A stretch of 64,000 nucleotides of DNA from Halopseudomonas pelagia (GTDB lineage: Bacteria > Pseudomonadota > Gammaproteobacteria > Pseudomonadales > Pseudomonadaceae): NCBI RefSeq assembly GCF_009497895.1, contig NZ_CP033116.1, positions 3,224,001 to 3,288,000 on the forward strand, in the 5' to 3' direction. Of this stretch, positions 10,990 through 62,729 are shown piece by piece. The notes under the pieces are model-generated. The model did not search any database, was not told where the DNA came from, and saw only the letters and a list, made by a program, of their open reading frames with translations. Position numbers and translations under genes: made by a program. Numbering within the stretch: position 1 is the stretch's first letter; every line of letters begins with the position of its first letter.

Positions 10990-10990
10990 T

Positions 10991-12607: not shown

Positions 12608-12621
12608 TCGGAGATCATCCC

Positions 12622-14603: not shown

Positions 14604-14624
14604 TCGAATGCCCAAGGAATCCGC

Positions 14625-35863: not shown

Positions 35864-36565
35864 TCACAGATTCATCAATTTGACCATGCGTGGCGTCGCT
35901 GCTTCATCAACACGAAGATTGGCGAAATCGAACAGCTGGGTATCAGCCAGTTGCGACGGATGAATGTGCCGCAACGAGCGAAAGATGCTCTCCACCCGCC
36001 CTGGATTTTCGCGCTCCCAGCCCTGCAGCATCTCCTTGATCACCTTGCGCTGCAGATTTTCCTGCGAACCGCACAGGTTGCACGGGATAATCGGGAATGC
36101 CTGTAGCTCGGCGTACGCGGTTATGTCCTTCTCATTACAGTAAGCCAGCGGTCTGATCACCACATTGCGACCATCATCGGAACGCAGCTTGGGCGGCATG
36201 GCCTTGAGACTGCCACCGTAGAACATGTTGAGAAAGAAGGTTTCGACTATGTCGTCACGATGGTGCCCGAGCGCCAACCGATTCGCGCCTATTTCATCGG
36301 CATAGGTGTACAGGTTGCCGCGGCGCAAGCGCGAGCACAGTGAGCAGGTGGTTTTACCCTCCGGCACTTTTTCCATCACCACCGAGTAGGTGTCGCGCTC
36401 AAGGATGTGGTATTCCACTCCCAATGCCTGCAGGTACGCTGGCAATACCTCCTCAGGAAAGCCAGGCTGCTTCTGGTCGAGATTCACCGCGACCAGATCA
36501 AAGCGGATGGGCGCAACCTTTTGCAGGTGCAGCAGCATATCCAGCAAGGTGTAGCTGTCTTTGCC
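35864..36565 (-). pseudogene. ttcA: 5'-truncated chromosomal ttcA (tRNA 2-thiocytidine synthase)
   Basis: The remaining 233 codons code for TtcA from [11 protein letters not shown] onward, including both cysteine pairs that hold the iron-sulfur cluster ([10 protein letters not shown] and [14 protein letters not shown]). The first part, about 45 residues with the SGG of the ATP PP-loop SGGKDS, is missing. The frame meets TAA directly before the GGC codon, and sequence to the right is AT-rich and unrelated. This looks like an island insertion within the PP-loop codons. A complete ttcA copy lies 175 bp away. Confidence 0.92.
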
Positions 36566-36739
36566 TTATAGGCCATAAACATATCAAAGAAAGCCCCGCG
36601 ATGCTCATAACACGGACTATTGGACATAAATACCTTTACACAATTGGAATTTTTTGTAAAGAATATAAAATCCTTGATGCGCGAACCGGGTATAAACATG
36701 AAGATGCACTCGCATTTGAACCTCCGACTTCACTCAATA
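36566..36739. other. Left junction of the genomic island
   Basis: These 174 bp are AT-rich and non-coding, between the cut ttcA and the complete island copy. The break from ttcA homology falls at 36565/36566. I saw no Tn7-type end repeats or integrase-core duplication, but the partner end lies outside the window, so attL cannot be defined. Confidence 0.6.
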
Positions 36740-37606
36740 TCAGAGATTGATTGCCTCAATAAAACTAGTCGAAGATATCTCTACACGCATGTCTTGAGTA
36801 CGGTTAACCTCATCCTCCCTGTTTAAAGCGAGGCTATGGAAGTCGAAGAGAGCTCGATCTGCTAATTGGCTGGGACTGATATTTTGCGTGCTATTAAAAA
36901 TACTCTCAATGCAGCCTGGTTGGCGTTTTTCCCAATCAAGCAGCATTTGCTTTATATTCTGACGCTGGAGATTTTCTTGGGAGCCGCACAGATTGCAAGG
37001 GATTATTGGGTAATTATTCAGCTCAGCCAATTTCGCAATATCTCTCTCACGACAATACGCCAAGGGCCGTATGACAATATTTCTTTTGTCATCGCTTAAC
37101 AATTTTGGAGGCATCGCCTTCATTTTCCCGTTGAACAGCATATTCAAGAAAAGTGTCTCAACCATGTCATCCATATGGTGCCCCAGAGCTAACTTCGTAG
37201 CGCCAATTTCTTCTGCAAAACCATACAGCGAACCTCTTCTAAGGCGCGAGCAAAGCGCACACGTAGTTTTACCTTCCGGCACTTTTTCCTTAACTATCGA
37301 GTATGTGTCCTTATCAATAATGAAGTAGTCAATTCCATTGTTTTCAAAATATTCCGGCAGGATACGCTCAGGGAAACCTGGCTGTTTCTGATCAAGGTTG
37401 ACAGCAACAACATCGAAATTAAACGGCGCTACTCTCTTTAAATGCAGGAGGCAATCTAACATAAAATATGAGTCTTTCCCCCCGCTGACCGCAGCTAATA
37501 TTTTGTCTCCCGCCTCAATCATCGAAAAATCAGCTACAGCCTTTCCAACATTGCCACGAAGCCTCTTTAGGAGCTTGTTTGCATTGTGCTGCTCTTTTTC
37601 TCTCAT
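36740..37606 (-). CDS. ttcA: Island-borne complete TtcA (tRNA 2-thiocytidine synthase)
   Basis: TtcA thiolates C32 of certain tRNAs. This copy of about 288 residues is complete: PP-loop [10 protein letters not shown] near residue 42, then [10 protein letters not shown] and [12 protein letters not shown] cysteine motifs, and a normal N-terminus ([20 protein letters not shown]). The ATG at 37606 matches where family members start; the frame is open to 37675. It is clearly diverged from the truncated copy and much more AT-rich, so it came with the island. It probably restores tRNA thiolation lost by the insertion. Confidence 0.93.
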
Positions 37607-37690
37607 TAGATATGCGCCTTGTCTCGTCACAAATTTAGCCTGAGGTTCTTCAAAAAATAATAAAACCCCTATCAACCGCCAATCAGTTTC

Positions 37691-37706
37691 AGTGTAATTT
37701 TACACT
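37691..37706. promoter_or_regulatory. Perfect palindrome upstream of the island ttcA
   Basis: AGTGTAA and TTACACT are exact inverted arms separated by TT, 85 bp before the ttcA start, in the 230-bp gap before the next gene. It has the form of an operator; no regulator is assigned. Confidence 0.4.
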
Positions 37707-37906
37707 TCTCTCGGACGGAAGCGAACCCAAAACGAGTAAGCGTGAGGTTAAACCTGAAACAAGAGGGATGCCCTCTATTTTGGGCTGTGCTGAGCCGTGA
37801 GTGTCGAAGGAAAGCCTAGGGGCTAGCAAACGCAACTAGCCGAGCTGGCTCAAAATGGCTGACTCAATGATGCCTCTTCCTCTGCGGCCACACTTGCAAC
37901 TCGCCC

Positions 37907-38311
37907 TCAAAAAATACGTCCTACCATTTCTACCTTCGCAAGCTTACGCACACCATTTCCCAGCAATACATAAGTTGTGTTTGCAGTCGCAAACAGGTAC
38001 CCATCCTCGAAAGCAACAAGTGGCGAAGTGCGCACAAAATCACCAATATCGAGGCGTTTTTCGGAGTCAAACAGGACAGTGTGCGCATATATTATAGCTG
38101 GCTGCTTACCAGTTGACTCTAAGACATTTAGCTGCTGTTGATTTAAGTCCAGATCAACCCATATCCAGTCGCGTACAATGCAGTACGGTCTAAGATCTTG
38201 TCGCTCTCGCATATACAAAAGAGCATCTTCTTTGGTCATGCTTGACCCCGGCATGGCCACGCCGGGGCCATACAAAAGTTGTGACATTTCTTCAAGACCT
38301 CTCATGCTCAC
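37907..38311 (-). CDS. Hypothetical protein, DUF6957-like
   Basis: This 134-residue soluble protein has a conserved-looking C-terminal half: YAHTVLFDSEKRLDIGDFVR, then TSPLVAFEDGYLFATANTTYVLLG. This resembles the DUF6957 family common in Pseudomonas, of unknown role, and is offered tentatively. It begins 20 bp after the helicase stop on the same strand, so it may share that operon. Confidence 0.6.
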   Translation of the reverse strand: MSMRGLEEMSQLLYGPGVAMPGSSMTKEDALLYMRERQDLRPYCIVRDWIWVDLDLNQQQLNVLESTGKQPAIIYAHTVLFDSEKRLDIGDFVRTSPLVAFEDGYLFATANTTYVLLGNGVRKLAKVEMVGRIF

Positions 38312-40075
38312 CCCCCCAACTTATGCAAAGGTTATTTCAGAAAACTTGACTCGCGTCTGATATATGAAGTCCACTCACGATGACTCTCAGGAATGTATAG
38401 CTTACCAGAAGCTCTCGTCATTGCTGTGTACAGCAATGCCAACTTTTTAGACATCAACTTTTTACCTCTTAAATCAGGTGCATAGTACAGATCTTCAGAA
38501 ATCGTTAATCGTGAGAACTCAAAGTTTTTGACAGTAAAAACTGTTGCGATTAATGATCGTGCAAGTCTTTTGTTTGAAAGCTCGCCAATGTGGGCACACT
38601 TATAAAGGCCTGAAACACCATATCTGGCACCAACCGTCCCCAGCCATTGCTCAACCCGGACGAAAGCGTCATTCCACATCATCTGATCACGAAGCTGACC
38701 CCACGTTTTATAGTGTGTAATCGGACCCGATATTGGTTTTTCATCGCGTAAATACAAATTAAGGCAGCTTTCTAAAAACCGCTCAAAACTCGAATCCCAG
38801 TCTACAACGGCCACACTCTGATTCATGTGACGGCTGCGTATAAGCCAATCAAAAAGCCCCCAATCATCTGCTACAAGTATCACGGTATGCTCAGGTGGAA
38901 AAGAGTTAGCCGGATACTCTGCAACAATCATCTCCTTCTCTTTATCCGCGACGAAGGGGTCTGACGGCGCGGCAGGAAAAAGCTCTATGATTTGATTGAT
39001 ATGATGAACTAAAGGCTGGCCTGCCCGGAGGGAAATACTCATATCCCGATGTCGTACTAGTGCATTATGAGGAATATAACTACCTTCAAGATTTTGGAGC
39101 TGGTCACCGAGGGATATTACCGTTTGAGGAGATCTATCGAGTATTTCAACCATCGGCGCAGTAAGGTCATGAGCCTCGTCGATCAGTATCGTGTCAATGC
39201 TCTCAGGAATGTAGAGCTGAGCCAATGAAGCTTGTTTTATTCTATGGTAGCCTCGGATTGGTAGAAGAGGGGCTTCTAAGTCCCAATGTGAGAGCTTTAC
39301 CCATAGAGTGGTAGCCGCAGCTATCAAGATTTGTTTTTCATAGTTGCTATACCCTTGAGCAGGTAATAATGGAATATGATCCAGGGTGATCTGAGGATCT
39401 TTTGACATGCAAAACTTGAAGATAGCTGCCCAGCATATTGCTGCTACCTGAGTCGCACTCTGACTGCCTATACCACTAAGAGAGGCTCGCTCAGCTAGAC
39501 CTGAATAAGATAGTGTTAACCTAGATGCCTCTACCATTCTAATTTGTAGAGCTCTGCTTCCATTTGATAGCAGAGACTCAGCTAATCTTTTAAAAGTTGA
39601 AGTCTTTAGACGTTCTTTAGGAAAGCGATCACGAATCGCTCTGAGCTTGGGTTCAACGTCTGCCAAAAAAATGAATTTTCGATCTGGCATTCTTGCCATG
39701 ATTTCGTCTAAAACGAACGTCTTTCCCGTGCCTGCGTAAGCTTGAGCTTCTATGGAGTCCTCTTGATTTGCCTGAATGTTGTTGATCAATCGAATCTGAT
39801 GGTCGCTTAATTTGGTGGTGACGCCACTAGGTCGTACAAGTTGGTGATTCAAAGCCGAATTTTTTCTCCGGTAAAGCTCAGCAAAATCAAAATTCCAACA
39901 TCCATCTGACCTTACAAAGGAATGCCTTGAGATGCTCTCGTTATCGACAATACCTATTCCTAATTCAGACAACTGTGCAAGGTGCGTATTCCGGCGAACG
40001 TGACCGGTCATTCCGGTGATCGTGACCGATTTGCACACGGCCTTCACGCTGGAACGGGTTTTGTACTCTGAGCGG

Positions 40076-40831
40076 TCACGATGGGTCAATCGATACCGCG
40101 TTTTGAGCGTTAGCCTTTCTCAGTGATTCCCCCTTCAGATTGAGCCGGTGGGCGCCGTGCAGGAGCCGGTCCAGGATGGCGTCGGCGAGCGTGGCGGAGC
40201 CGATGTACTCGTGCCAGTGTTCGGTGGGTAGCTGACTGGCAATGAGCGTTGAACCACGTCCATGACGGTCCTCGATCACCTCCATCAGATCCTGTCGTTG
40301 CTGGGCATTGACCTTCTGCATGCCCCAGTCATCTAGAATCAGCAGATCGGTTTTCAACAGCTGCGTCATCAGGCGGGCGTAGCTGCCATCGCCGTGGGCG
40401 ATCCGCACTTGCTCGAACAGCCGTGGCACCCGCAAGTAGCGGACGGATAGCCCTTGGCGGCAGGCCTGGTTGCCCAGGGCGCAAGCCAGCCATGTCTTGC
40501 CACAGCCGGTGGGACCGGTGATACACAGATTCAGCGATTGACCGATCCAGTCACAGCTGGCCAGGCCTGCCATACGGGAACGTTCCAGCCCTCGCGGGTG
40601 GCGATAGTCGATGTCTTCGATGCAGGCCTGCACGCGCAAGCGAGCAGCCTTCAGTAGCCGGTCCAGCCGACGGTTCTCCCGGTGCAGCACTTCCCGGTCT
40701 ACCAGCAGGGCCAGGCGCTCCTCGAACGCCAGGTCATGGGTTGCGGGCTGCGCCCGCTGCTGTTCCAAGGCGTCGCACATGCCCGTTAGCTTGAGGTGGC
40801 GCAGGGTGTTGAGTGTGTTGTGAGTCAGCAT
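40076..40831 (-). CDS. istB: IS21 helper ATPase IstB
   Basis: This 251-residue AAA+ ATPase (DnaC-like) assists IstA in target choice. Walker A is GPTGCGKTWLACALG, Walker B DLLILDDWGMQ, and the usual C-terminal ILDRLLHGAHRLNLKGESLR is present. It starts 14 bp after istA ends. Confidence 0.95.
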   Translation of the reverse strand: MLTHNTLNTLRHLKLTGMCDALEQQRAQPATHDLAFEERLALLVDREVLHRENRRLDRLLKAARLRVQACIEDIDYRHPRGLERSRMAGLASCDWIGQSLNLCITGPTGCGKTWLACALGNQACRQGLSVRYLRVPRLFEQVRIAHGDGSYARLMTQLLKTDLLILDDWGMQKVNAQQRQDLMEVIEDRHGRGSTLIASQLPTEHWHEYIGSATLADAILDRLLHGAHRLNLKGESLRKANAQNAVSIDPS

Positions 40832-40845
40832 AGGTCTCTCCGGGA

Positions 40846-42390
40846 TCAGTGGTAGTAATGCGGGCCGCGAACGTTGGTGTGCGCCGGCAGGTCGGTCAGG
40901 TCACGCTCATCGTCGGCCAGAGGCAGCGGGAACTGGTCCAGCCCCTGTTTCAGGATCGAGGTGATGCTCTGGTAGCTGGCCGAGTTGATCGACAGCGCCC
41001 GGGCACAGGCTTGTTCAAGGCGTTCACGGCTGTAGCGCCGACTGAGACTCAGCAATCCCAAACAAGCGCGGTAGCCATGCTCTGGATGAGGGCGGTCCTT
41101 GAGCTGGCTCTGCACCACCTCCAGCGTGCCGGGGCCGATGTCCTTGGCCCAGTTGAGGAAGCGCTGCGGCGACCAGTCCTTGTGGGCCTGATGCGCCTTG
41201 GGCATGTGTTCGGTCAGGGTTACGAAGCGGCTCTTCCCGTGGCGGGGATGTAATGCCACCCGCTGGCCCTTGTGCATGACCTCCAGGGCGGTATCCGTTA
41301 ACCGTACGTCCAGAACCAGCCCCACCAAGGCGTGAGGTACGCTGTACAGGCGTTTGTCGACCTCGATGTGGTAGTCGATGCCTGGCCTGGCCTTGCGCCA
41401 TTCGGCGTAGGTATAGGGCGCTACTGGCAGAGGCCGCAGTGCCGGTCGATCAAGTGCGTCGAACAGGCTCTGACGGCTCTCGGTTCGACCCTGGAACAGG
41501 CGCTGGTTCAGGGCTGGTAGCAACGCTGCAATGGCGGCATTGAGTTCGGCCAGGGAGAAGAACATCTGATGCCGTAAACGGGCCAGGATCCAGCGCTCGA
41601 CCAACAGCACCGACGTCTCGGCCTTCGCCTTATCCTTGGGCTTGTAGGGCCGTGCTGGCAATACCGCCGTCTGGTAATGGCAGGCCAGCTCAGCATAGGT
41701 CTCGTTGATCGTCGGACTGTAGCGGTCCGCCTTGGTCACCGCCGCCTTGAGGTTATCCGGAACCAGCAGTTCCGGTACCCCGCCAAAGAACCTGAACATC
41801 CTTTGGTGGGAGGCGATCCAGTCTGGAAGGCTCTGGCTCCAGGTAGCCTCGGCGAAGGTGTAACTGGACGCGCCCAGCACTGCCACAAAGACCTGGGCCT
41901 TGCGCACCTCACCGGTAGAGCGGTCCACCACCGGCACAGTAGGGCCGCAGTAATCGATAAAGATCTTCTCGCCAGCCCGGTGGACCTGTCGCATGCTGCG
42001 GCGCTGCCGGCCACGCCAGAGCCGGTAGTGGTGGCAGTACTGGCTGTAGCGATACGCCTTGTCGCCGTGGCGTTCTACGTATTCGGCCCAGAGCAGTTGC
42101 AGAGTGACGCCTTTGGTCTTGAGCTCTTGATGAACCTCGAAGTAGTCGGGCTCGGCAAAGCGTGACGGTGGCGCCTTGGCCGGGAACAGCAGCGCGTACA
42201 GCCGAACCTTGTCCAGGTCCTTCGGCAGTGGCCAGGTAACGCCCTGAACCTGGGCCAGGCTGACGTACTTGCCGACCACGCCCTTGGAGAGTCCGCAGGC
42301 ACGAGCAATGCGCTCGTGACTGAGACCGGCTTCGTATTTGAGGCGCAAGACCTCGATGATCTGTCGCATGGAAATCCTCGCAGCCGGCAT
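40846..42390 (-). CDS. istA: IS21 transposase IstA
   Basis: This 514-residue DDE transposase begins at ATG 42390 behind GAGGAAGAG. It has an N-terminal helix-turn-helix (HERIARACGLSKGVVGKYVSL). The rve core includes FIDYCGPTVPVVDR (first Asp), LLVPDNLKAAVTKADRY (second Asp) and the Glu in KAKAETSVLL. No frameshift is seen, so it should be active. Confidence 0.95.
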   Translation of the reverse strand: MPAARISMRQIIEVLRLKYEAGLSHERIARACGLSKGVVGKYVSLAQVQGVTWPLPKDLDKVRLYALLFPAKAPPSRFAEPDYFEVHQELKTKGVTLQLLWAEYVERHGDKAYRYSQYCHHYRLWRGRQRRSMRQVHRAGEKIFIDYCGPTVPVVDRSTGEVRKAQVFVAVLGASSYTFAEATWSQSLPDWIASHQRMFRFFGGVPELLVPDNLKAAVTKADRYSPTINETYAELACHYQTAVLPARPYKPKDKAKAETSVLLVERWILARLRHQMFFSLAELNAAIAALLPALNQRLFQGRTESRQSLFDALDRPALRPLPVAPYTYAEWRKARPGIDYHIEVDKRLYSVPHALVGLVLDVRLTDTALEVMHKGQRVALHPRHGKSRFVTLTEHMPKAHQAHKDWSPQRFLNWAKDIGPGTLEVVQSQLKDRPHPEHGYRACLGLLSLSRRYSRERLEQACARALSINSASYQSITSILKQGLDQFPLPLADDERDLTDLPAHTNVRGPHYYH

Positions 42391-42884
42391 CCGCTCTTCC
42401 TCGTGAAAAAAGGAAGCGGTATGCGCGATTAAGTTGAAGAATTCCAGTGTGTTGGCAGTGATTCCGGGGGAACGTGACCGACGATTCCGGCATCGTGACC
42501 GGTGATTCCGGGATATCACCCAAAATCGGTCACGATAAAACGGAATGAGCGGTCACGTTAGCCCGGAACAGGCGGTCACGTTCAAACGGAATGGGCGGTC
42601 ACGATGGGCCGGAATATGCACAAGGCCTTTAATGAAGCCCCCTGTATCGTAGACTTCAGCTAAAGCAGCCTTAAGCTGATCGCTGGAAATATTGAAGATA
42701 TTTGAAAACTTCCGCTCCATGTCGAGAGCAGACCGTACGGGTGATGTTAGGGGTTTAGAAAGCTGAAGCACGAAATGGATAGCAGCGAGCTCGCACTTGG
42801 GCAGGCTTAGTAAATCAGGAGGCGCTCCGCCAACCAGAGTATCTACCGTTGCTTCGCTGAGAGGTATGAACCAGCTTAGCTTTT

Positions 42885-43088
42885 TCATAAAGGCTTAACC
42901 ATCCTTGGCAGCTTGTTTACCCGCTTGCCACAGTACCGTGATTTTAAGTGGTGAATGTCAATTGGCTTTGCATAGCGTCGTCGAATAATCGCGCATGTGT
43001 GAAATGCCTTAGCCAAATGCCGCGTACTGACGAAACGCCTACTCCCCATTGGAATAACACCTTGTGGAGATCCTTGGGTCACCATCAA
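42885..43088 (-). CDS. Small basic hypothetical protein upstream of the split helicase
   Basis: This 67-residue frame is rich in R, K and H and has no recognised domain. Its stop overlaps the helicase ATG by 4 nt (ATGA), the usual sign of translational coupling and the only reason to keep it. An internal ATG 13 codons in (MGSRRFVSTRHLAK) is an alternative start. Confidence 0.4.
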   Translation of the reverse strand: MMVTQGSPQGVIPMGSRRFVSTRHLAKAFHTCAIIRRRYAKPIDIHHLKSRYCGKRVNKLPRMVKPL

Positions 43089-43155
43089 GAGTAGACGAAA
43101 GCAACGCCTTGGCCAGCCGCACTGTGTTTGTCCCGCTAACTAGGCTGTCATGAAC

Positions 43156-43641
43156 CTAACGCCTTAAGGTAGAAATAATCTCTTGCCGAACCCTTGCCTC
43201 GGAAATTCCAAGCATGCCATCAGTCTTAACTAATCTATGCAGACTGTCCTCTGGCCAGCCGGATCCATCATCATCAATTGCAAGCCAGCTATCGAATCGG
43301 CCTAAGCGATTGAGATAGGTGGCAATTTGTTCATAACGACTTTGTTGATCCCAAAGAACAGTGTCTGTGCTGTTTCGCTTCATAGCAGAATGCCACGTGG
43401 CACCCACCAGCCTAGCTGCAAGCGCGGCTGATAACATACCTTTGGCTCGCTGAAACCCTAGGTTCCTAACCCAGCTCGTGGACAGTACGATACCTACTTC
43501 AGGGAAGGGTTGGAGCAGTTCTTCAAGCAGCGGTGCCCACATAAACAGAGCGCCCTCAGACAGGAGCTCGATCTGACCATCCACTCGCCTATAGACGGCG
43601 TCGGGATGTAAGACACCATCGTAATCGAGAAATAACAGCAT
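43156..43641 (-). CDS. HAD domain protein of the RNA-repair-associated type
   Basis: This 161-residue protein opens with the HAD motif I LFLDYDGVLHPDAV. Motif II is in VGIVLSTSWVRN, and a late acidic motif is WLAIDDDGSGWP. The shape matches the HAD domain found in Swiss-Army-Knife RNA repair proteins, though no ligase or kinase domain is present. It would be a phosphatase. It is divergent from a PPP-type phosphatase gene, with 98 bp between starts. Confidence 0.75.
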   Translation of the reverse strand: MLLFLDYDGVLHPDAVYRRVDGQIELLSEGALFMWAPLLEELLQPFPEVGIVLSTSWVRNLGFQRAKGMLSAALAARLVGATWHSAMKRNSTDTVLWDQQSRYEQIATYLNRLGRFDSWLAIDDDGSGWPEDSLHRLVKTDGMLGISEARVRQEIISTLRR

Positions 43642-43739
43642 CTGGATAACCTGTGCATGATAATAAACCCTCTGAGTAGTACTCTAAGCTGGGCAAGTCC
43701 GAATGCCAACGCCATATATGAAGTCATGGGAACCTTCCA

Positions 43740-44447
43740 ATGAGACTTAATGAGCCAGTCTCACCAGTGCTGAGTGTTCACCGCATCCTTCCAGCTAACT
43801 TGAACGGAAGAGATTGGGTTTGCTCAGACCTTCATGGACATCTGCCAAAACTTTTGGAACAGCTGAGGTCAGTGAAATTTAACCCCCTCTCTGACAGACT
43901 AATATTACTGGGTGACCTGATTGATCGCGGACCCCATTCTTATCAAACCCTACAATGGGTGCTCACCACCCCGTGGTGCCACAGCGTGATAGGTAACCAT
44001 GAGCTTATGCTATGGGCTGCTGTCCAGAACCCCGAACTCACAAGTAAACGATTAGCCATGGGTGGAGCTTGGACCCACTCGCTGGATAGTGAGGAGCTGC
44101 GTATCCTCGCAGAGGCCGTACAGACTCACTTCCCTTTATCCTATAGCGTACCAACAGATATAGGGATGATTGGGCTGGTCCATTCTCAAAGCCCTGTCGA
44201 CGACTGGAACGAAATGCAGCACATTGTTTTCTCTGAATCATTGGCTAAGTGCTGTACCTGGGCATGGTCGCGTGCCTACCAGCATGGCGAATATATCCAG
44301 AATGTGGAAGCTGTTGTCTCTGGTCATATTGGTACAGACAAGATTGTCATACGCGGTAACCAGCTTTGGATAGATACTTTAGAACGGACCGGACAACCAA
44401 CCCTACTGAGCGCAAAGGAATTACTAGATCTTGTAAGAAGCCGCTAG
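43740..44447 (+). CDS. PPP-family metallophosphoesterase (PrpA/PphA-like)
   Basis: This 235-residue protein has the bimetal phosphatase motifs in order: SDLHGHLPKLLEQL (GDxHG-type, with SD for GD), LLGDLIDRGPHS and VIGNHELML, with later His residues in LVHSQSPVDDW and VVSGHIGTDK. Bacterial relatives dephosphorylate phosphoproteins or diadenosine polyphosphates. Its place in the island beside a HAD gene and near a kinase-containing system is notable, but no functional link is shown. Confidence 0.85.
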   Translation: MRLNEPVSPVLSVHRILPANLNGRDWVCSDLHGHLPKLLEQLRSVKFNPLSDRLILLGDLIDRGPHSYQTLQWVLTTPWCHSVIGNHELMLWAAVQNPELTSKRLAMGGAWTHSLDSEELRILAEAVQTHFPLSYSVPTDIGMIGLVHSQSPVDDWNEMQHIVFSESLAKCCTWAWSRAYQHGEYIQNVEAVVSGHIGTDKIVIRGNQLWIDTLERTGQPTLLSAKELLDLVRSR

Positions 44448-44634
44448 CCCATCGCCCAGGAACTTGCAATCGCGCTTTAATCACAGGCTGGCGGTGGTTT
44501 GCAGCTTTAACCACCTGACGACCAGGCTTATAACCAACCCCAGGCTCGGATGCCGGGTCTGATTCGCCTCTGATCTCTACACTCGAGTTTAGGTACTAAT
44601 CTGGGCCTCGAAATCAGGCGTGAAACCCCACACT
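44448..44634. other. Convergent intergenic gap
   Basis: There are 187 bp between the phosphatase stop and the stop of the 483-residue gene. GGTGGTTTGCAGCTTTAACCACC can form a hairpin (GGTGGTT with AACCACC), a possible weak bidirectional terminator at about 44491-44513. Confidence 0.4.
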
Positions 44635-46086
44635 TCACTCCTCCAAGAGATCAATGTCTTCTTCTGATACTCGCTCTTCTGGCACTTCAATACTACCGTA
44701 CTGTTTGAGGTAGTTTTCCGTTCTGCTGACAACTAGTGGATCAAGACTCATGAACCCAACTGGGACAGCGTGACCGATGGTAGATGAACCAGGCAGATGA
44801 ATCAAAACACCAGCCGCCACACCAGGCACCAGGAAAATCTCGACTGATTGTGGGGGACTGTCATTCAGGTAATGTTGTTTTTCCGTGAACGCTTTATGGG
44901 GGCCTTGTGCGCTGCGCTCAAGCAAGAGTACTGCACTAGGCTTTTGCTCCTCGCTACCAAGCTTCTCAGCGATTTGGTCCTGCACTCGTTGAATAATGGT
45001 GGGAAGCACCCTTGTAGTTCCCCAATAAGGCCTACGGGGAGCATGCCAATAAAACTTTCTGGGCAAACAAGTCGCTGGTGTGTAGTTGACGGCTCGGGTT
45101 ACAGCCAAGTCAAGAACAGCCGAATTGATGGGGGTAAAGAATGGACCTATTATAGCGATAGTTTTCCGTCTCTTCTGAAACTTGTGATCCTTCACCGCAA
45201 CAGCATCACGCTGGTATCGTTCAACCGAAAATCCGGTTTTAAGAGTGTAGCTCCGGAGAAACTCAGGAGCTAATTCCATCAGTATCTTATAGTCGTCAAC
45301 GGCGCTCTCTGGGACATGCAACCGTAAATCTTCTACAAATTTTCCAATTGCCGTAGCCACCTGTACCCGGTCATCCAGCTCATGCTCCGGCCGCCACTCA
45401 AGAAGATCTGGCTCTCCTTGATGTAAGAATGCTTGAGGAGATTTGACGACCACAGGCACCAAGGCAGAGAACTTATCCCCAGGAGTGACCGAATCTATCG
45501 AGTACAATGAACGTTTTAGCAGAGCACGTGACCCCTGCTTGGTGTTTAGCTCAGTAAAGTGTCGCTTGAACGAAGCCGGGATCTGCTCTTTGCCCTTGCT
45601 GACTAGCGCGTGGTCAACTTCCAGAGAATGTAAGCAGTGATCAAAAGCAGTAGTCCTAACGGAGTCTTGAGGAGCAAAGGAGATGAGATCGAAACCAAAA
45701 TTCCATGTACGCTTTTCAACATTGAAGATCTGAGGCTCCTCTCCCCCTGCTACAAAGAGATCCCGCCCCGCGCGAGTAGTCCAAAGCCGACCAGAGTCGC
45801 GGCTCACATAGCCAAGGTTGACTGCATCATTGAGCAGGTAAGTCATCTCCTGAGGGGAGAAATCAAAAAACTTGGTAACGTCCGCTTCGGGCATTCCATC
45901 CACTGAGTGGATCAATCGTAATAGGAACTCTGTGCTCTGAGACACCTTTCCTACCTCAGCGACTTTATGCTCGATCTTGTAGTTGCGACCGGCTAGCAGC
46001 GCATCGTAAACACCAATAACGACATCGACTGACTGTTCATCTCCGGAGGGCAGCTCTCGACTTCTAAGTGTCAAAGTACCTTTCAT
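44635..46086 (-). CDS. Unrecognised 483-residue partner of the NERD-kinase-helicase protein
   Basis: I do not recognise a named family. An N-terminal segment (VVIGVYDALLAGRNYKIEH) is followed by a winged-helix-like stretch (MPEADVTKFFDFSPQEMTYL... WTTRAGRDLFVAG), a mixed middle domain and a C-terminal alpha/beta part with AVLLLERSAQGPHK and VEIFLVPGVAAGVLIHLPG, ending in an acidic tail. The ATG overlaps the helicase stop by 4 nt, so the two are coupled. There is no PLD HxKxxxxD motif, membrane helix or signal peptide. A DNA- or RNA-binding partner or effector is inferred. Confidence 0.7.
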   Translation of the reverse strand: MKGTLTLRSRELPSGDEQSVDVVIGVYDALLAGRNYKIEHKVAEVGKVSQSTEFLLRLIHSVDGMPEADVTKFFDFSPQEMTYLLNDAVNLGYVSRDSGRLWTTRAGRDLFVAGGEEPQIFNVEKRTWNFGFDLISFAPQDSVRTTAFDHCLHSLEVDHALVSKGKEQIPASFKRHFTELNTKQGSRALLKRSLYSIDSVTPGDKFSALVPVVVKSPQAFLHQGEPDLLEWRPEHELDDRVQVATAIGKFVEDLRLHVPESAVDDYKILMELAPEFLRSYTLKTGFSVERYQRDAVAVKDHKFQKRRKTIAIIGPFFTPINSAVLDLAVTRAVNYTPATCLPRKFYWHAPRRPYWGTTRVLPTIIQRVQDQIAEKLGSEEQKPSAVLLLERSAQGPHKAFTEKQHYLNDSPPQSVEIFLVPGVAAGVLIHLPGSSTIGHAVPVGFMSLDPLVVSRTENYLKQYGSIEVPEERVSEEDIDLLEE

Positions 46087-48097
46087 AATCTCACCTTAGA
46101 ATCTCTTTGAGCCTTGGATGATGGGGCCGAAGCCTCTTGGGCCGCCCGCTGTCCCTCCAAGAGATCCGACGCCTCTCTGATGACTGCATTTCCCGCTGCA
46201 ACTTCGGCATCGAAGTTCTTGGCGAGCTCAGCCATGGGTTCGTCCGCAGCCCAGCCATGCTTGGCGCCGACGATGACTAATCTGTCCATTGCCCTGCTTG
46301 TGGCCACGTTAATTCGATTCGGTCTTTTCATGAACCCAGACCGGATGGTGGGCTTCCCATCAACGATCCTACCGTCCGAATTATTGCGAACGAGGGATAG
46401 AATCACGATGAGGTTTTCCTTCCCCTGATAACTGTCTACAGTATCAATCTTAATCGCCTGCCTCATTACGTTGCTCACACTGGCCACTCGTAGTTTTTGC
46501 TTTAAGGCAGTAGCCTGAGCACCATATGTACAAATTACTCCGATTGCATAATCCAAGTCATTACGAGCTTCTAGCCACTGGATAAACTCGGGAGATTTAT
46601 CCCACTCGGAAATCATCCCCATAATTACCTCAAGCTCTTTAGGATTCGTAAGTGACTTCCGAGACTTGCCGACCTCGGATTTCTGATACCCCTTTTCTTT
46701 CAGGTCGTCCGTGTAAACCCATGTCAGAGTATGCTTCAGACTATCAGGAAAGACCTCAGGGCTGTGCTCAGAAACAACCCGTCCCGAGTCAAGCTCACCG
46801 TTATAGAATGTGTTCGAGACCATACGACCAATCGGTGGCAGCATCCGGTACTGAGTTGTTATTCTTCGGCCGATCTCTTTTCCAATTGGAGACTCGAAGA
46901 CTCTTTCGAAATCGCTCTTAACAATCTCGTTAGCGGCGAATCCCGTTTCATCAACAACAGTAGAAACGACTTCCTCCTTGAACCTGGGCTCTAGCTGTTC
47001 TTGGTCACCTACAAGCACCACCCAGCTTCCAGCCTGCATTGGAACAGCCAGCTCGCTGGCAGTGGATCGAGCCGCTTCGTCGATCACAACCAAGTCAAAC
47101 ACAGTAGATGTAAGTCCAAGGGAGGACCGCCCCAGTCCAACACAGGTGCCGGCAACGATTTGACGGGTACCCGCAAGGAATGTCTCAAAGCTCCGCTCGG
47201 CGGTAGAGACACTTCCGATAATGTCTCGCGTTAAACGCGCTACTGACCTAAATCTAGCCACTAGATCTAGCGAGCAGTTGCTCCGCTTGGCAGCCTTATC
47301 AAATACTTCTTCGAGCAACTTTGGATCCGGGAGTGCGGACATGCTCGGCAATTCAATTTCTAACTCATGATCAACGTTTAATGTGTCGAGGGTTTTCATC
47401 AAGCTATCAATTCGATCAATGGCTCCGTCACGCTCTGTGTCTTCAGCTAGCGCGTTGATCTGTTCGATAACAGGCCTCACCGTGATCTCGAGCAAAATGA
47501 GCGTTGCTGAAACTTCCTGGGGAATTCCGATGGCCCTTGCAGCGACGATCAAGCGATCTTTCAGTGTGGCTTGAAATTTGTCTTTGTAGAGTTGCTCGAC
47601 GCGTGCAACGTGGAAGGGTAGTAAGCGCTCCGACACGTTGAGTTCCTGCCCTACCCGAATAATGCTTGGGGCTTCCGACAGTGCCGGATAGAGTTTAAGT
47701 ACCGCCTCTGCCGCGTTATTCACAGCCTCGTGAGATTGACTTGAGAGAAGCACGTTACGTACATACCCTTTGGTCAGCGCATAGTGGATGAGCGCCCCTA
47801 TGAAACGTGTTTTCCCCGTACCTGGTGGCCCCTGAAGAAGACCGAGCGGCCGGACCCTGAACAGCGCAGCGAAGGCCTCTGCTTGACTATCATTGAAGCC
47901 GTAAAGGGACTTAACCTCATCGACATTGACCTCAATTGAGGTTGAACTCACTTGAGCGTTACTGTCCGGATTAAAGTAATCGACCAAATTTCGTACCACA
48001 GATTGCTTATTCAGTAGGCGTGTAACGGTAATCCCCCCAAAAAACAGCGGTGATTAGAAGTAGAATTTTCCGTAAGCTATTTGGAGGGAGATTCTGC

Positions 48098-48364
48098 ATG
48101 AAGACATCACGTTTTACCGACAGCCAGATCATGGCGATTCTGAAACAAGCCGAGAGCGGCATACCGGTGCCGGAGCTCTGCCGCGAACACGGTATGAGCA
48201 GTGCCAGTTTTTACAAGTGGCGAGCGAAATTCGGCGGCATGGATACGTCCATGATCAAGCGCATGAAAGAGCTAGAAGATGAGAACCGGCGGCTGAAAAA
48301 AATGTACGCCGAAGAGCGCCTCAAATCCGAGTTACGCAAGGAGGCTCTTGAGGGAAAGTGGTAA
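48098..48364 (+). CDS. IS3-family transposase OrfA
   Basis: This 88-residue protein has a helix-turn-helix ([19 protein letters not shown], then [20 protein letters not shown]) and a leucine-zipper-like tail ([20 protein letters not shown]). The ATG at 48098 follows GGAGGGAG. Its end overlaps orfB. Confidence 0.93.
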
Positions 48365-49185
48365 AGCCATCTCTTCGCCGCGAGATGGCGCAAAAAACTG
48401 TTGCAGCTGGTCGCTGTAGTATTCGCCTGGCCTGTGTAGCCTTCAGTGTCAGTGAGTCCTGCTATCGCTACCAGGCCAGGCTCAACAGTGAGAATTCCGA
48501 GATCGCGGACCTTCTGGTTCGGTTGACCCATAACCAGCGCAACTGGGGTTTTGGATTGTGTTTTCTGTATCTGCGCAACGTAAAGGGATACCTCTGGAAC
48601 CATAAACGTGTTTATCGAATTTATCGGGAACTGGAACTGAACCTGCGCATCAAGCCCCGTAAACGCTTGGTACGCGAGAAACCCGAGCCACTCGCGGTGC
48701 CCACGGTAATCAATGCCAGCTGGTCTATGGACTTCATGCACGACCAGTTAGAAGATGGTCGCAGCTACCGGCTGTTCAATGTGATTGACGATTACAACCG
48801 GGAAGGTCTTGGCATTGAAGTAGACCTGTCGCTGCCTTCTGAGCGCGTCATACGGGCTCTGGATCAGATCATTGAATGGCGAGGAAAGCCCGTCCAGATC
48901 CGCTGTGACAATGGACCGGAATACATCAGTGCTACGCTGGCTGCCTGGGCTGAGAAGCAGGGCATTGCACTGGCCTTTATCCAGCCCGGCAACCCGCAGC
49001 AGAATGCGTACATCGAGCGCTACAATCGCACCGTGCGCTACGACTGGCTGGCCCAATACCTGTTCGACTCCATTGAGGAGGTTCAGGAATATGCAACTCG
49101 GTGGCTATGGACCTACAATAATGAACGGCCAAACATGGCCTTGGGTGGTATCACGCCCCGACAGAAGTTGGCCATGGTGGCCTGA
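48358..49185 (+). CDS. IS3-family transposase OrfB
   Basis: This is a 275-residue DDE integrase: first Asp in [13 protein letters not shown], second in [10 protein letters not shown] and Glu in [16 protein letters not shown]. It overlaps orfA by 7 nt in another frame, so expression is probably by frameshift or re-initiation. Confidence 0.94.
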
Positions 49186-52100
49186 CTCTACTTCTGAGCT
49201 CCGCTAATAATGGGGGGATTACCTAACCGCGGCAACCCGTCGATCAATGTTTGCCTGTTCCATATGGCTCTGGAAACGCAGCCTCTCATCCATCTCTACT
49301 AAATAACCACTGGCAGGCATCCAGCCCTCTGCATCTACCGAAATAATCTTATCGCTCGAACCGCTCACATCGAGCAATCCGATCTTCCTCCAGCCTTTGT
49401 TGCCCAAGCGCTCGACGTATACCCGGTCATTTCGACTGAACTCGAGCGTCCCGCACTCAAGCTCAATTGGAACGATATGAAGTCTGGTTTCCTTCCTGAA
49501 ACTGCTGATGCCCGATGCCACAGCCTCGATCGTTAACTCTTTTTCGACATCAACAAGCTTTCGCCAAAGGAGGGGGACGCTGGTAGGCTTTTTCTCTAAC
49601 TGACTATCGACTATTTCGGCTATCGCATCTTCATCGGTCTCTGCTTCAGTAGGCTCCTCTTCCGGCTGCTCTTGATATTCTTCCAGTTCCTCAGCGCCAA
49701 CTGCTTCCTTAAAATTCGGCCCCAATAGCAAGGCTGAAAAAGGTGTCTCATTGAACAGGTTTTGAAAATCATCAAAGGAATAGGCAACTCCACCCAAAAC
49801 TTGAATTTCGAGAGAAATCGACCCTAACTGACGCTGGGAAAGAATCTTGCTGTTAAGAAAAGGAATTGGTGAACGTCTTGCGTACTTAATCTGGCCACTC
49901 TGTATTGTAAAGAATAGCGCCTCACTCGCACCCCTCAGGTAAAAATATCCTCTATCAAACCCGTAACCGAAGACCCCTTCGTCAGAGAGAATCTCACCGG
50001 ATGTTGCGCCCGGCAGGCCGATAGTCAGTCGGCGAGTGAGCTTCGGAGGTTCAGGCGATAGTATGTTTTCAATAGCATCAAACAGAGGCAGAAGCGTAGC
50101 GTTCTCAAGTGCTTCTCCCCGGCAAACTTCGATCGCCTTATTAATACCCTTCCTGTCTATCTCAGCAATCTGCACACCATCCAACATCTCCGTAATCATT
50201 ACAGTTACGGCGAAGCGATCGCGCTCGAAGCGCCCCCCTTTCTGGGGCGTATAGGCAGATGACTGAATTTCCCCATCAGCTCCGCATGAAAAATCATGGT
50301 AGTCAATGAAGTTGGGTGCGAACGGCTCTCCGGTAATCAGGATGTTCCCGGGCTTTAGGTCTCCGTGAGCAGCACCTGCGTCATGCATCACGATAACGCT
50401 TCTAACTAATTCAAGGAGAAATCCAAGAATAGATTCAGGGGCTAGTGTCGCTCGGTCGCCATACAGGACGTGCTCGGCAAGAGTAGGCCCGTCCACCTGT
50501 ATTTGAGTTATAACAATAGCATCCTGAAGCCAGATAGCATCCTTGATCGGAACGCATGATGGCGGTGGCGAGCAAGATAGTTCCTGAGCCTTTTCCAAAA
50601 AGTCGAGTATTCGTGGATAGTCTGCATCGCCGTCACTCCAAGCAGTTCTCTTCCAGAGCTTTACGATCAAGCGCTCTCCATCTTTCTCAGAGGGCCACAA
50701 CATCACGTAGTTGTCTTCTTTCAGTAGGTCACCAGCAAAAGGATACAGCCTGGATAGCTGGATCTGATTAGCTACCGTTTTGAATTTTTCGAGCCTTTTT
50801 AATATGGTAGCGCCATTCACATGGCTGCTCAGAAGCGCGTTAAACCGGTCAAGCATCTCTGCGGCAGTTGAATACCTCTCCGAGGTATCCCATGACAGAG
50901 CCTTTTCAAGCACCTCGTGAACCTGACGATAAGTCCCTTCTACGTCGACGTCGGAATTCCAGTGAGGAACCGAGTCGATCAGCTCAGGGCCTATTCCAAA
51001 TAGAAAAAGATGCATCAGGCATCCGAGATGATAGACATCTTTCTGCTTCGGCGAGAGACTACCGTCAAGCACTTCTTCTGGCGTTACTAAACTGGACAAA
51101 AACTGATATCGCGACTCACCAAGCGACCTGGCCTCAGGATATCGGGCCGTCATTAGATGTGAAAACCTTACAACAGAGGGTAGATCTACCCACACACTGT
51201 GAGTACCTAGGTCAAGGTGAGCCGCATCGAAGGCATGAAACGCCTGAGCATGCGAAAGCATTTGACGGACAAGCTCCAGGCGCTCTTTAGGACGAAGCGC
51301 CGGCAACTCGCTTGGCAGGAACTCTGAAAGCCGCTTCATTTGACGCCGTCTGTCGTAAACTTCCCACGAATCAACCGAGGCCTCAGGATCGAAGGCCTTC
51401 ACTTGTAGTATTGCTGCATGGCAGTCGGGACTTCTATCGTTAAGCCATGCAATGACGTTACGCTCTCGGCTTGCTATTTCCCCGCGACCCTCCTCCGTCT
51501 GAAATCGGGTGTCAGCTTTAGAGAAGTCCCACCGCCGAAGAATTCCAATGGCCTGGGCCGCAGAGTCATCTTGAACATTGAATTCTGCGTAAATACCTGC
51601 TGGATGTTCATAAGTTGGACTGCCTATGCCTGTCGCGACGTATCCTCCGTAGCGACGCTTTCCTTCTTGGAAGACTCCATCCCTCACATTGAAAAACTTC
51701 TCCAGTCGTGGCTTCCATTCGGCAGAATTGACCGGGCGGGAGAGAAAATCGGGATTTACGGGCGGAAAGTGAGACAGCCTCTTTCGGGTATCAGTGATCG
51801 TCGCAACAAATTTCTTCATCGTGAAAACTTGACCGATCTCAGTAGGTGCAATACCGCTAAGGTCTGAACTACCAGTCAGAACAACAACCCCTTCTACGCG
51901 AGGAGTCGGTAGTCTGGGATGCTTCGTCCGCCTAGCGAGATCTGCAAGATAATCGCCAAGAAGGATTTTTACCTGCCTCGCATTCTCGATAATCTTTTTG
52001 ACAGGAGATCGTACGGGGGGCTTACCATTGTGAACCCAATCACCTCCACTACTTTCGTAATGTCCCCGACCATCTTTGAGATCTATGAGATAGATGCGAT

Positions 52101-52263
52101 CGTTGGCAAAAAGAATTACATCGATTTCTCTCGGCCCGCCGTGGGGGAGCGACAAATCCAGATTCGTGTGTGCAACCCAATCTTCAGGAAGGTTACTTTT
52201 GAAGTAGTCGATTCCAGGCACTTCACGGGCGTGGATCCCTCGGCCATGGTTTACAATTCTCAT

Positions 52264-52619
52264 GGAAGTCCTTTTCGCATTTTTTCAACGGCTGAAATTT
52301 GGGCACACAAGGCAGATTCTATTTGGCCAGTATACAAACGCCCATAGTCAAACACCACACGAACGAGAATGCTTGAGAAGCGTCTCTTCCCGCAGCTAGC
52401 TGCTTTCTAGCACTCATTTCCATGACAAATCTTTTTGGCGTGGCTCCTACCGACTCAGCAGCTAATAAAATGATCACTTGAAGCAGGTATAACTATTTTC
52501 AGATTGGCCGGTATCGGCTAAATCTGCCGGACGGGACTTAAGCAATATGTAGTCGATCAACCAGGGTTGATCGTGAGACCAGCAGCATTAGCATTCTTAT
52601 TGCAACAGCGATGATAGAA
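52264..52619. other. 356-bp intergenic region upstream of the NERD-kinase-helicase gene
   Basis: No gene is seen. The stretch must hold the promoter of the NERD operon and the end of the REase-STAND transcript. It includes a short inverted pair GTCGATCAACC...GGTTGATCG at about 52552-52572. No operator is assigned. Confidence 0.45.
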
Positions 52620-55600: not shown

Positions 55601-56419
55601 GCAGAAATACACCAATCTGCTGACGCAATTCAGTAACCGTTCCAGCAGCTAACGCGAGAGTATCAATTAAAAGAAGGCCCAGCCCTTCAACAAGGTACGG
55701 TCGCTCAAGAACTAACGCAGTTCCTTCCTGGCGTAGCACTCCGCCAGATGCGAGCTCGGACAAGGCTTCAAGCACATGTGGATTAAATGCAAGTAAATCC
55801 TTCAACTCACCCGAAGTGACCCGCCGACTCATCTCTTTGGCAAGGTGTCGCAGAACACTCTCAAATTCATCGGGTGCTACTGGATAGTCCATACGCCTGC
55901 GGTAAAGATTTTTCCAAGCGTGATACTGAAGCATCTCAACTGTGAGCTCGTTCGCATGACCCCCTTGTCGCAAGTACGCTAGCGCATCTGCCAGATAGCG
56001 GGGTTTTCTAGCAACAGGGCCGAGCGCCCAAAGCTTTTCAACAATCTCCCGTGGCTGACTTTGCATTGCAACAGCGAACTCTTGTTCGTTAAACCCAGAG
56101 AGATCAACCTCCGTAGCCTGAAGGTTGAGTCGAGGCTTAAGCTGCTTGCGCCAGGTATCTGCCCTGCACGTGATGACAAGCAATATCTGAGGCCCCGCTT
56201 CCGCTACTATATTCGCTATATAATCTGTCCAAAAAGTGATGTCATGCCTCTCATTGATACCATCTAGGACGATGATTCCGCATGCGTCCGACGTAATACC
56301 AAGCCACCTTCGAATCTTAGGAAAGAAGATATCTTCTTCGGATGTTTGCAACTGGATAACAGCAAGTCGTGCTAAGTCTTTTAGGCCTCGCTCGGGTTCT
56401 ACCCCGTTTCCACGGACGG

Positions 56420-57217
56420 TTATAAAACGGCTGTGAGCTTCCGATCCTGAACAGCAACTCTACGTCGCATCCTGGGGTTATGGAACCGCTCGATGTATTC
56501 AAACAGATCAGCTCTTGCCTCGTCCTGCGTACGGTAACGCCGATGGTGTACTCGCTCTCGTTTTAGCATGCCGAAGAACCCCTCACAGGCTGCGTTGTCT
56601 CCGCAATGGCCAACCGCGCTCATGCTGCTGACCAAATCGTTACTGCCTAGATATCGCTGGTAATCACCGCTGGTAAACTGACTGCCTCGGTCTGAATGCA
56701 GTATTACTGGGGTTTCGCCCTGACGTTGCCAGACAGCCATTTGAACAGCTCTGATTACCATCTGCCGATCCTGCCGGTGGTGCATAGACCAGCCAACGAT
56801 CAGCTTGCTGAATAAATCCAGAACCACGCAGAGAAATAGTTTTCCTTCCTGGGTGGAGATCTCCGTAATGTCAGTGACCCATTTGGTATCAGGTTCCAGT
56901 GCGGAGAAATCCCGTTCAAGGTGATTTTGAATACCTTGTGGCCGATTTGATGCGCGTCCGAGGCGTCCTCGCTTCCTACGGGGCCACCCCTGAATGCCGT
57001 GCTTGGCCATTAGCCTTGCAACACGATTCAGGCTGGCTGCAACGCCTTCGGCAGCCAAGTCTTCGTGCATTCGGGGCGACCCAAGCATTCCGCCACTGTC
57101 ATCGTGAATCTCTCTGATACGCGACAGCAGACGGTCGTTCGCTCTTGCCCTGCTGGACTGCGGACGAGATGCCCAAGCGTAATAGCCGCTGGCCGATACC
57201 TTCAGGCAACGACACAT
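56420..57217 (-). CDS. IS3-family transposase OrfB
   Basis: This is a DDE integrase with first Asp in [17 protein letters not shown], second in [16 protein letters not shown] and Glu in [20 protein letters not shown]. The ATG at 57217 is only the first in frame; similarity ([10 protein letters not shown] before [15 protein letters not shown]) extends upstream, so the natural product is probably an OrfAB fusion by frameshifting. Confidence 0.9.
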
Positions 57218-57264
57218 AAGACGTATCGGGAAAAGACTGCGACAGTGTTGAATCGTCTGATACC

Positions 57265-59938: not shown

Positions 59939-60038
59939 CAGCGGATAGAAGTAAAACCTGATCGCACGCCACATAGCGAGAGGCTGATTAACACCGTCAC
60001 GGACGCAGCCGAAAGCGTCTTTCTATTTAGAGGGTTGC

Positions 60039-62663: not shown

Positions 62664-62729
62664 TTGGATTGCGCCGCTCTTTTTGCTTTAACGATTTATC
62701 TCAACCTCCAGGCTAGGCAGTGCAGAATC

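What the first reader, a model, noticed from the sequence alone, without database searches (positions are those of the whole stretch)
35864..37606. Island inserted into the PP-loop of ttcA and carrying its own replacement ttcA
Seen: the chromosomal ttcA begins abruptly at GKDSYTLL, preceded directly by an unrelated TAA codon and AT-rich DNA. A full, diverged ttcA with [10 protein letters not shown] lies 175 bp away in the same direction. Inference: the island targets the highly conserved PP-loop codons of a tRNA-modification gene and pays for the damage with a replacement allele. Conserved core codons would make a dependable attachment site across species. I do not know a described element with this target.
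Basis: partly seen in the sequence, partly recalled or inferred. Interest (0 to 1): 0.85.

Follow-up and report, generated by a model that had tools for sequence, protein, structure and literature searches.

The report
Mobile island breaks and replaces ttcA
A 63-kb mobile DNA island has inserted itself into the most conserved stretch of a bacterial tRNA-modification gene and brings its own complete copy of that gene; related islands are found at the same codons in other bacteria, so the element looks adapted to a landing site that most hosts keep.

Summary
[quoted passage not shown] It enters at a 6-bp crossover, GGCAAA, the Gly-Lys codons of the PP-loop signature SGGKDS; its ends are inverted repeats around that 6-mer. 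In all 15 genomes examined (this one included; Pseudomonadaceae, Halothiobacillus, a Geobacteraceae MAG) a ttcA-type gene is cut at the same codons. In 13 of 15 a complete extra ttcA was found, under strong purifying selection where measurable; in two (G024, G238) none was found. On a Pseudomonas aeruginosa plasmid the same kind of element sits at the same codons of another PP-loop gene, and a second plasmid shows the same distal junction, so the target is the motif's DNA rather than ttcA alone. The two 6-mers of one element differ in 7 of 13, only at wobble positions, as if the distal copy came from an earlier host. GInts are known, Rac prophage uses another part of ttcA, and a P. putida island replaces the tmk it breaks. 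New, as far as searched: a GInt lineage aimed at catalytic-motif codons that carries its target gene.

The parts
35864..36559 (-). 3' part of the host chromosome's own ttcA, cut off from its start; begins with the Asp codon of SGGK|DS
   Evidence: frame closed by a stop just upstream of the 6-mer
36560..36565 (-). 6-bp crossover at the distal junction, GGCAAA on the minus strand = Gly-Lys codons of SGGKDS; the matching copy is at G000:C1:3323938-3323943
36566..36739 (.). distal end of the island, 37.9% G+C, ending GCCTATAA against the 6-mer; imperfect inverted repeat of the other end TTATGGGC
36740..37606 (-). island-borne complete ttcA (288 aa), PP-loop and both Cys motifs present
36566..64000 (.). 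the part of the 63,372-bp element that lies in the window; it runs on to G000:C1:3323937. Outside the window: ginD to ginA in listed ORFs 3318159-3323945 (the listed ginA frame runs past the junction; its probable ATG is 157 bp inside the element) and the 5' ttcA remnant
40076..42519 (-). IS21-like istB + transposase inside the island (a second, identical copy nearer the other end, L038:8877-11320)
44635..52263 (-). cargo: Mokosh-like defence genes (MkoB match; MkoA match split over two ORFs with an IS-type integrase ORF between them)

Best explanation
The island is an integrated GInt. Its ginABCD recombinases join a circular form, whose junction is an imperfect inverted repeat around a 6-bp spacer GGNAAR, to the chromosome at the Gly-Lys codons of the PP-loop signature SGGKDS, nearly always in ttcA (anatomy shown; the reaction inferred from the family). 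This splits ttcA into a 5' part followed by ginA and a 3' part that begins behind the distal end. The island supplies a complete TtcA of its own from a gene usually placed against the distal end, so the host keeps its tRNA C32-thiolating enzyme (presence, intactness and purifying selection shown; activity inferred). Because the crossover is exactly two in-frame codons that ttcA must keep, moving from host to host alters ttcA only at wobble bases; the distal 6-mer appears to be the one brought from the previous host and the ginA-side 6-mer the present host's own (inferred from spacer patterns and from the polarity reported for SE elements).
For: 5' remnant plus recombinase operon at the far end. 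Junctions GCCTATAA-GGCAAA-TTATGGGC in the window's element and a perfect 8-bp repeat GGATAGAA-GGCAAG-TTCTATCC in the Geobacteraceae one. Same codons in 15 of 15 genomes: all 12 strong GinB hits among 398 family genomes plus 3 genomes from a separate scan. A complete carried ttcA in 13 of 15. dN/dS of the carried ttcA 0.04-0.08 in the 14 of 36 pairs (9 of 13 copies used) that were not saturated; PP-loop and Cys motifs kept in 13 of 13. Recent movement: G230 and G362, of different genera, have gin regions 99.7% alike (5.5 kb) but adjoining host ttcA 5' parts 85.7% alike (126 bp). In the Geobacteraceae element ttcA overlaps ginD by 4 bp. Spacer differences: 10 in 7 of 13 elements, all at third codon positions; the distal GGAAAA of G230 is absent from 27 intact ttcA of its genus, 24 of which have GGCAAG.
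Against: No excision, circle or transposition was observed. In G238 (assembly 98% complete) and G024 (75% complete) only the 5' remnant was found and no complete ttcA anywhere; lost contig ends or elements without ttcA are both possible. In 6 of the 13 the two ends lie on different contigs of draft assemblies, so that they belong to one element is inferred. In the plasmids the broken gene is not ttcA, so the carried ttcA cannot repair that damage. In the Geobacteraceae element ttcA lies next to ginD, not at the distal end. Some elements combine near-identical ttcA with very different gin operons (G246 against G088; G149 and G194 against G088). The clear flanking repeat is only 6 bp, shorter than the 10-11 nt given for GInts. 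The spacer polarity was checked against hosts of two genera only.
Confidence: 0.85

Rival explanations
1. The carried ttcA is ordinary cargo picked up once by an ancestor and kept by chance, not compensation for the broken gene.
For: Plasmid insertions hit another gene; ttcA sits at a different place in the Geobacteraceae element; ttcA and gin modules have been reshuffled; two genomes with the 5' remnant show no complete ttcA.
Against: Found in 13 of 15, and in every genome where a 3' remnant was found (13 of 13); strong purifying selection; elements as far apart as Pseudomonas and Geobacteraceae hosts.
Confidence: 0.1
2. The carried ttcA is mainly a maintenance device: once the host gene is split, loss of the island by any route other than precise excision leaves the cell without TtcA, so the island is retained.
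For: In the 13 genomes with a 3' remnant no second full-length ttcA match besides the island's was found. P. aeruginosa ttcA mutants are sensitive to peroxide (PMC6082896, passages including the abstract).
Against: Precise excision would restore the host gene, and wobble-only spacer differences suggest that restored genes stay functional. Not exclusive of compensation.
Confidence: 0.2
3. The truncated gene is a decayed tandem duplicate with no island boundary.
For: Two ttcA genes in tandem.
Against: The missing 5' part is 63 kb away, 35 of 37 genus genomes have one unbroken gene, and the same junction recurs.
Confidence: 0.01
4. Another module moved the island and the gin operon is only cargo: a phage-type integrase (an inner tyrosine integrase gene, L037:7614-8513) or the IS21-like transposase/istB pair present near both ends.
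For: Rac prophage uses ttcA; an inner integrase gene exists; two identical IS21-like copies lie 3.5 kb and about 6.6 kb from the ends.
Against: The gin genes directly follow the junction in 14 of 14 right ends long enough to read and the element's end sequence there is conserved; inverted repeats around a 6-bp spacer suit tyrosine recombinases; Rac's site is at the 5' end of ttcA. I did not search the relatives for the inner integrase or the IS copies.
Confidence: 0.02

Closest known systems
GInt elements, also called Tn6571-family transposons or the Tn6488/Tn6571 subfamilies of the Tn554 family (PMC5385486, Results and Discussion read; names from passages of PMC10121019 and PMC8865565)
   Same: ginABCD order, sizes and position at one end; variable cargo including defence genes; AT-rich other end; strict site; 6-nt staggered exchange proposed there
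   Different: Targets named in the parts read are an ABC-transporter 5' end, ssb and the end of a ribonucleotide reductase gene; no ttcA, no catalytic-motif site and no carried copy of the target is described there. Tables S1-S4 could not be opened.
Strand-biased circularizing integrative elements, SE (PMC10214605; Background part 1, section 12 and passages read)
   Same: 6-bp spacer between inverted repeats, host's 6 bp kept on the integrase side and the circle's 6 bp at the far side; the pattern seen here fits that polarity
   Different: SE genes are intA-tfp-intB-srap and the paper separates SEs from GInts by sequence; no replacement gene described in the parts read
P. putida KT2440 island in tmk with dNMPK PP_1964 (PMC10653934; abstract and passages read)
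   Same: A 65-kb island with tyrosine recombinases splits a core gene and carries a gene for the same activity at its edge; its authors call it a first-case example
   Different: Target is tmk; the replacement is a T4-related kinase, not an orthologue; its conserved flank is described as a TetR-type regulator, two recombinases and one unknown protein. Here the replacement is an orthologue and the site is the PP-loop
Rac prophage of E. coli in ttcA (PMC4632033; passages read)
   Same: Target gene ttcA; intR lies beside ttcA in an E. coli record
   Different: Inserts at the 5' end of ttcA and leaves a variant TtcA with four changed N-terminal residues; no carried second ttcA is mentioned in the passages read

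Membership tests
GInt | Four-gene operon ginABCD at one end of the island | tested here: met
   14 of 14 right ends long enough to read have four successive frames (stop to stop: A 425-467, B 550-573, C 765-786, D 139-193 aa; A lies in two frames in G077); G342's contig ends 10 bp past the junction. Four other gin-like operons of the same bacterial family match gene for gene, best hits 23-36% identity; ginA of one of them lies in two frames
GInt | Three tyrosine-recombinase-type proteins plus a small fourth protein | tested here: inconclusive
   GinA hits PF00589; GinB hits NCBIfam NF041502 below its cut-off; GinC and GinD match nothing in Pfam or NCBIfam. Their catalytic residues were not examined
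GInt | All four genes needed for excision and integration | not testable with these tools
   needs mutants
GInt | Flanking imperfect direct repeats of 10-11 (10-17) nt | tested here: inconclusive
   Only the 6-bp GGNAAR is clearly shared by both ends
GInt | Short AT-rich end opposite to gin | tested here: met
   174 bp at 37.9% G+C, against 52.3% for the island part in the window
GInt | Sequence relation to a named published GInt | not tested
   no published gin sequence was fetched by name
SE | intA-tfp-intB-srap gene set | not tested
   order and sizes are those of ginABCD; SE proteins were not compared
SE | 6-bp spacer with fixed polarity | tested here: inconclusive
   Pattern only: the ginA-side 6-mer is GGCAAG in 14 of 15, the distal one varies; host spacers read in two genera; no movement observed
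Rac-type prophage in ttcA | phage integrase at the 5' end of ttcA | tested here: not met
   the junction is in the PP-loop and gin genes abut it

The most novel reading that the evidence does not exclude
A mobile-element lineage has evolved to use the DNA of a catalytic motif (SGGKDS codons) as its attachment site, so that selection on the host protein keeps the site alive across phyla; it carries an orthologous replacement that lacks the site. In 15 of 16 island-type copies the first serine is AGY, whereas 87 of 88 host-type genes read have TCN there, and the 16 ginA-side junctions read (15 genomes, one plasmid) all have TCN. The element also records the previous host's Gly-Lys codons in its distal 6-mer. 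In this reading the replacement is both repair and self-immunity.
Probability: 0.28. Interest if true: 0.82.

Novelty: new variant of a known kind. Interest (0 to 1): 0.62.

Why it matters
Many known islands use tRNA genes or gene ends and rebuild what they cut. This lineage cuts through the active-site codons of a conserved enzyme and brings a whole substitute. If confirmed, it shows another way for an island to make a core gene a safe landing site, explains tandem truncated-plus-complete ttcA pairs, makes the ends of these GInts easy to map (the 6-mer reads Gly-Lys in every element seen), and may give a natural record of an element's previous host.

Tried and rejected
Decayed duplicate without boundary: rejected. 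Tn7-like module: the genes beside the 5' remnant are tyrosine-recombinase-type; the only transposase/ATPase pair near the ends is an IS21-like element present in two identical copies. Self-immunity by changing both serine codons: weakened. The second serine is TCN in 16 of 26 other gammaproteobacterial ttcA genes (27 of 29 loci showed SGGKDS, one of them island-like and set aside) and in two hosts that were hit (G037, G040), and one of the six other conserved serine columns also differs in class between island and host. Only the first-serine contrast remains, with one exception each side (Halothiobacillus island copy; a Shewanella host-type gene), and island copies are related to each other, so they are not independent. 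The pattern used to find the right junctions asked for TCN, but no element was missed by it. Strict co-inheritance of ttcA and gin: rejected in part. Viral contigs gave no GinB relative (only two short peptide patterns were scanned), phage records none. The named-genome scan also used two patterns only and is incomplete. In 369 genomes spread over the class a strong GinB was found only in the window's own genome; in the family sample 12 of 398.

Papers opened in vain: PMC7145413 (its 'ttca' is a primer), PMC8373256 (other sites), PMC10121019 and PMC8865565 (GInts mentioned, ttcA absent), PMC12595487, PMC6385640 and PMC6379469 (prophages at ttcA).

Full report
WHAT IS THERE. The window is G000:C1:3224001-3288000 of a single-contig genome. 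On the minus strand the host's ttcA starts in the middle, at GKDSYTLL, behind a stop codon; 174 bp upstream in the same direction lies a complete ttcA of 288 aa. Searching the genome with the latter found one further ttcA piece, query residues 30-67, at 3323938-3324051 on the same strand (the only other hit is a distant 33% match). That piece reads ...VMVCLSGGK and then runs into foreign DNA. The two pieces bracket an element of 63,372 bp, of which 27.4 kb lie in the window.

THE MACHINERY. Beside the 5' piece, reading away from it, lie four ORFs listed at 470, 548, 771 and 142 aa; the first frame runs past the junction and its probable start is 157 bp inside the element. The first is a tyrosine recombinase by Pfam (PF00589, E = 3.7e-12); the second matches an NCBIfam integrase model below its cut-off; the other two match nothing in either library. 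Order, sizes and position are those of the ginABCD operon that defines GInts (PMC5385486: Results and Discussion read). Four other gin-like operons in the same bacterial family match all four genes in order, best hits 23-36% identical, close to the 24-40% reported between GInt families. I could not compare with a GInt sequence identified by name.

THE SITE. On the ginA side the host reads CTGTCCGGT then GGCAAA, and the element follows with TTATGGGC. On the distal side the element ends GCCTATAA, then GGCAAA, then the host GACAGCTACACC. So the shared 6-mer is the Gly and Lys codons of SGGKDS, and the element's two ends are inverted repeats around it. The Geobacteraceae element has different but perfect repeats, GGATAGAA and TTCTATCC, around GGCAAG.

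RELATIVES. A GinB profile hit 38 of 398 genomes of the family, 12 of them strongly (836-1005 bits; the next score is 37.8). A scan of named genomes with two short peptide patterns gave 4 loci: Halothiobacillus sp., Pseudomonas helleri, a Geobacteraceae MAG, and the MAG HGW-Gammaproteobacteria-11, which is G024 of the family set. In all 15 distinct genomes a 5' ttcA-type fragment is cut at S-G-G-K; in 14 the gin genes follow directly, while in G342 the contig ends 10 bp past the junction. In 13 of the 15 a 3' remnant beginning at GKDS and a complete ttcA were also found. In G024 (75% complete) and G238 (98% complete) only the 5' fragment was found and no complete ttcA. Of the 13, the complete ttcA lies against the distal junction in 11; in G342 the two are on different contigs; in the Geobacteraceae element it follows ginD with a 4-bp overlap. 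Both ends are on one contig in 7 of the 13 (G000, G037, G040, G149, G194, G246, G385); in the other 6 the link is inferred. The broken genes of Halothiobacillus and Geobacteraceae are ttcA-like but distant: their 3' parts are 36% and 42% identical to the window's island TtcA. The class-wide sample has 1 strong hit in 369 genomes, the window's own, and 2 weak ones. A protein search lists 120 of 134 GinB relatives, including Burkholderia, Cellvibrio, Chitinibacter and Desulfuromonas records, whose sites I did not read.

ANOTHER GENE, SAME CODONS. In P. aeruginosa plasmid NZ_CP129201.1 the same kind of element interrupts a different gene at ...AWSGGK / GKDSSVTL; its ends match those of chromosomal relatives over the 60-70 bp compared, and a ttcA lies at the distal end. 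Its gin genes look decayed: ginB matches in three pieces over several short annotated ORFs. The 3' piece of the broken gene matches 106 plasmid records at 99% or more; 28 of the 30 listed rows are annotated 'phosphoadenosine phosphosulfate reductase family protein'; I did not check that each is unbroken. A second plasmid, NZ_OR283034.1, has the same distal junction in the same gene with a different element end and a ttcA, but no GinB match was found on it, so only that end was seen. Hence the recognised thing seems to be the PP-loop DNA; ttcA is the usual place where it occurs in the right form (TCN GGN GGN AAR GAY AGY in 55 of 56 intact host loci of two genera, 0 of 13 island copies).

THE CARRIED TtcA. 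It keeps the PP-loop and both Cys motifs in 13 of 13 copies; four cysteines of these motifs are needed in P. aeruginosa TtcA (PMC6082896, passages). dN/dS is 0.04-0.08 in 14 of 36 pairs among 9 of the 13 copies, the other 22 pairs being saturated. The genus' own TtcA are 63-68% identical to the island's.

MOVEMENT. G230 and G362 belong to different genera; their gin regions are 99.7% identical while the adjoining host ttcA parts (126 bp) are 85.7% identical; G088 and G077 have gin regions 100.0% identical with host parts 94.4% identical. GinB and TtcA distances of 12 elements correlate (r = 0.80; 1 of 5000 permutations as high), yet G246 and G088 have TtcA alike (distance 0.00) while their GinB differ by 38%, so end modules recombine.

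SPACER MEMORY. The two 6-mers of one element differ in 7 of 13 elements, 10 differences in all, every one at a wobble position; by chance (two positions of six) about 2e-5, counting differences as independent, which related elements are not. The ginA-side 6-mer is GGCAAG in 14 of 15 (GGCAAA in the window's element), as in 24 of 27 intact genes of G230's genus and 22 of 29 of the window's genus; the distal GGAAAA of G230 occurs in none of these 56. For SEs the host's 6 bp stay on the integrase side and the circle's 6 bp go to the far side (PMC10214605). The pattern here fits that rule: the distal copy would be the previous host's codons. This is inference; later mutation of a dead 3' part is the alternative, which the wobble-only pattern makes less likely.

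WHAT IS KNOWN. Text searches for ttcA with island, integrase, attachment-site, GInt and PP-loop terms and for Tn6571 listed no paper that I could recognise as describing a GInt in ttcA; the lists were capped, and I judged most rows by title and start of abstract. 'ttcA' does not occur in the main texts of PMC5385486 and PMC10214605, whose supplements I could not open, nor in PMC10121019 and PMC8865565, which name GInts as Tn6571-family or Tn554-family transposons. Rac prophage in the 5' end of ttcA and the tmk island of P. putida are the nearest precedents found for target and strategy.

SHOWN AND INFERRED. Shown: both remnants, the 6-bp junction, the operon, recurrence at the same codons in 15 of 15 genomes, a complete conserved ttcA in 13 of 15, and insertion in a second PP-loop gene. 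Inferred: that ginABCD performs the recombination, that the carried TtcA works in place of the broken one, the spacer polarity, and any self-immunity. For the last, island-type copies have AGY at the first serine in 15 of 16 (13 elements, two plasmids, one island-like gene in G439), whereas host-type genes have TCN in 87 of 88 (29 and 27 of two genera, 26 of 28 further class loci with the motif found, 5 of 6 from named records); the exceptions are the Halothiobacillus island copy and a Shewanella gene.

Confidence in the best explanation went from 0.86 to 0.85, in the cargo rival from 0.08 to 0.10, in the bold reading from 0.30 to 0.28 and interest from 0.63 to 0.62, because the recount showed that G238 and G024 have no complete ttcA in their assemblies and that several ends are on separate contigs.

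Noticed in passing
window 44635-52263: Mokosh-like defence genes in the island: MkoB match and an MkoA match divided between two ORFs (profile 1-980 and 990-1603) with an IS-type integrase ORF at 48358-49185 between them.
   Followed up: partly
window 60039-62663 and L037:1950-5720: An SMC-like ATPase with weak matches to many defence models (LmuB best) and a 1256-aa protein with a weak LmuA match: possibly a Lamassu-like pair.
   Followed up: no
window 40076-42519 and L038:8877-11320: Two identical IS21-like copies (2444 bp, identity continuing 94 and 101 bp outward) toward opposite ends of the island.
   Followed up: partly
L037:7614-8513 and 8553-14741: Inside the island: a further tyrosine integrase gene, and a run of genes with CcmH-like TPR, CcmF, AhpC-type, cation-efflux matches, with a fatty-acid-hydroxylase match beyond.
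   Followed up: no
L130 (Photobacterium toruni plasmid NZ_CP101696.1): A distant four-gene gin-like operon on a plasmid (GinB 32.7% identity); its insertion site was not determined.
   Followed up: partly
G246: Junctions about 106 kb apart; its TtcA equals that of G088 and G077 but its gin operon is very different, suggesting exchange of end modules.
   Followed up: no
PMC5385486 text: P. aeruginosa GInts are said to lie at the end of a 'duplicated' ribonucleotide reductase alpha gene; this may be a second GInt lineage carrying its target.
   Followed up: no
G439:C204:3433-4272 (L168): A TtcA 68% identical to the island's with the island-type first-serine codon; no junction within the fetched flank.
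   Followed up: partly
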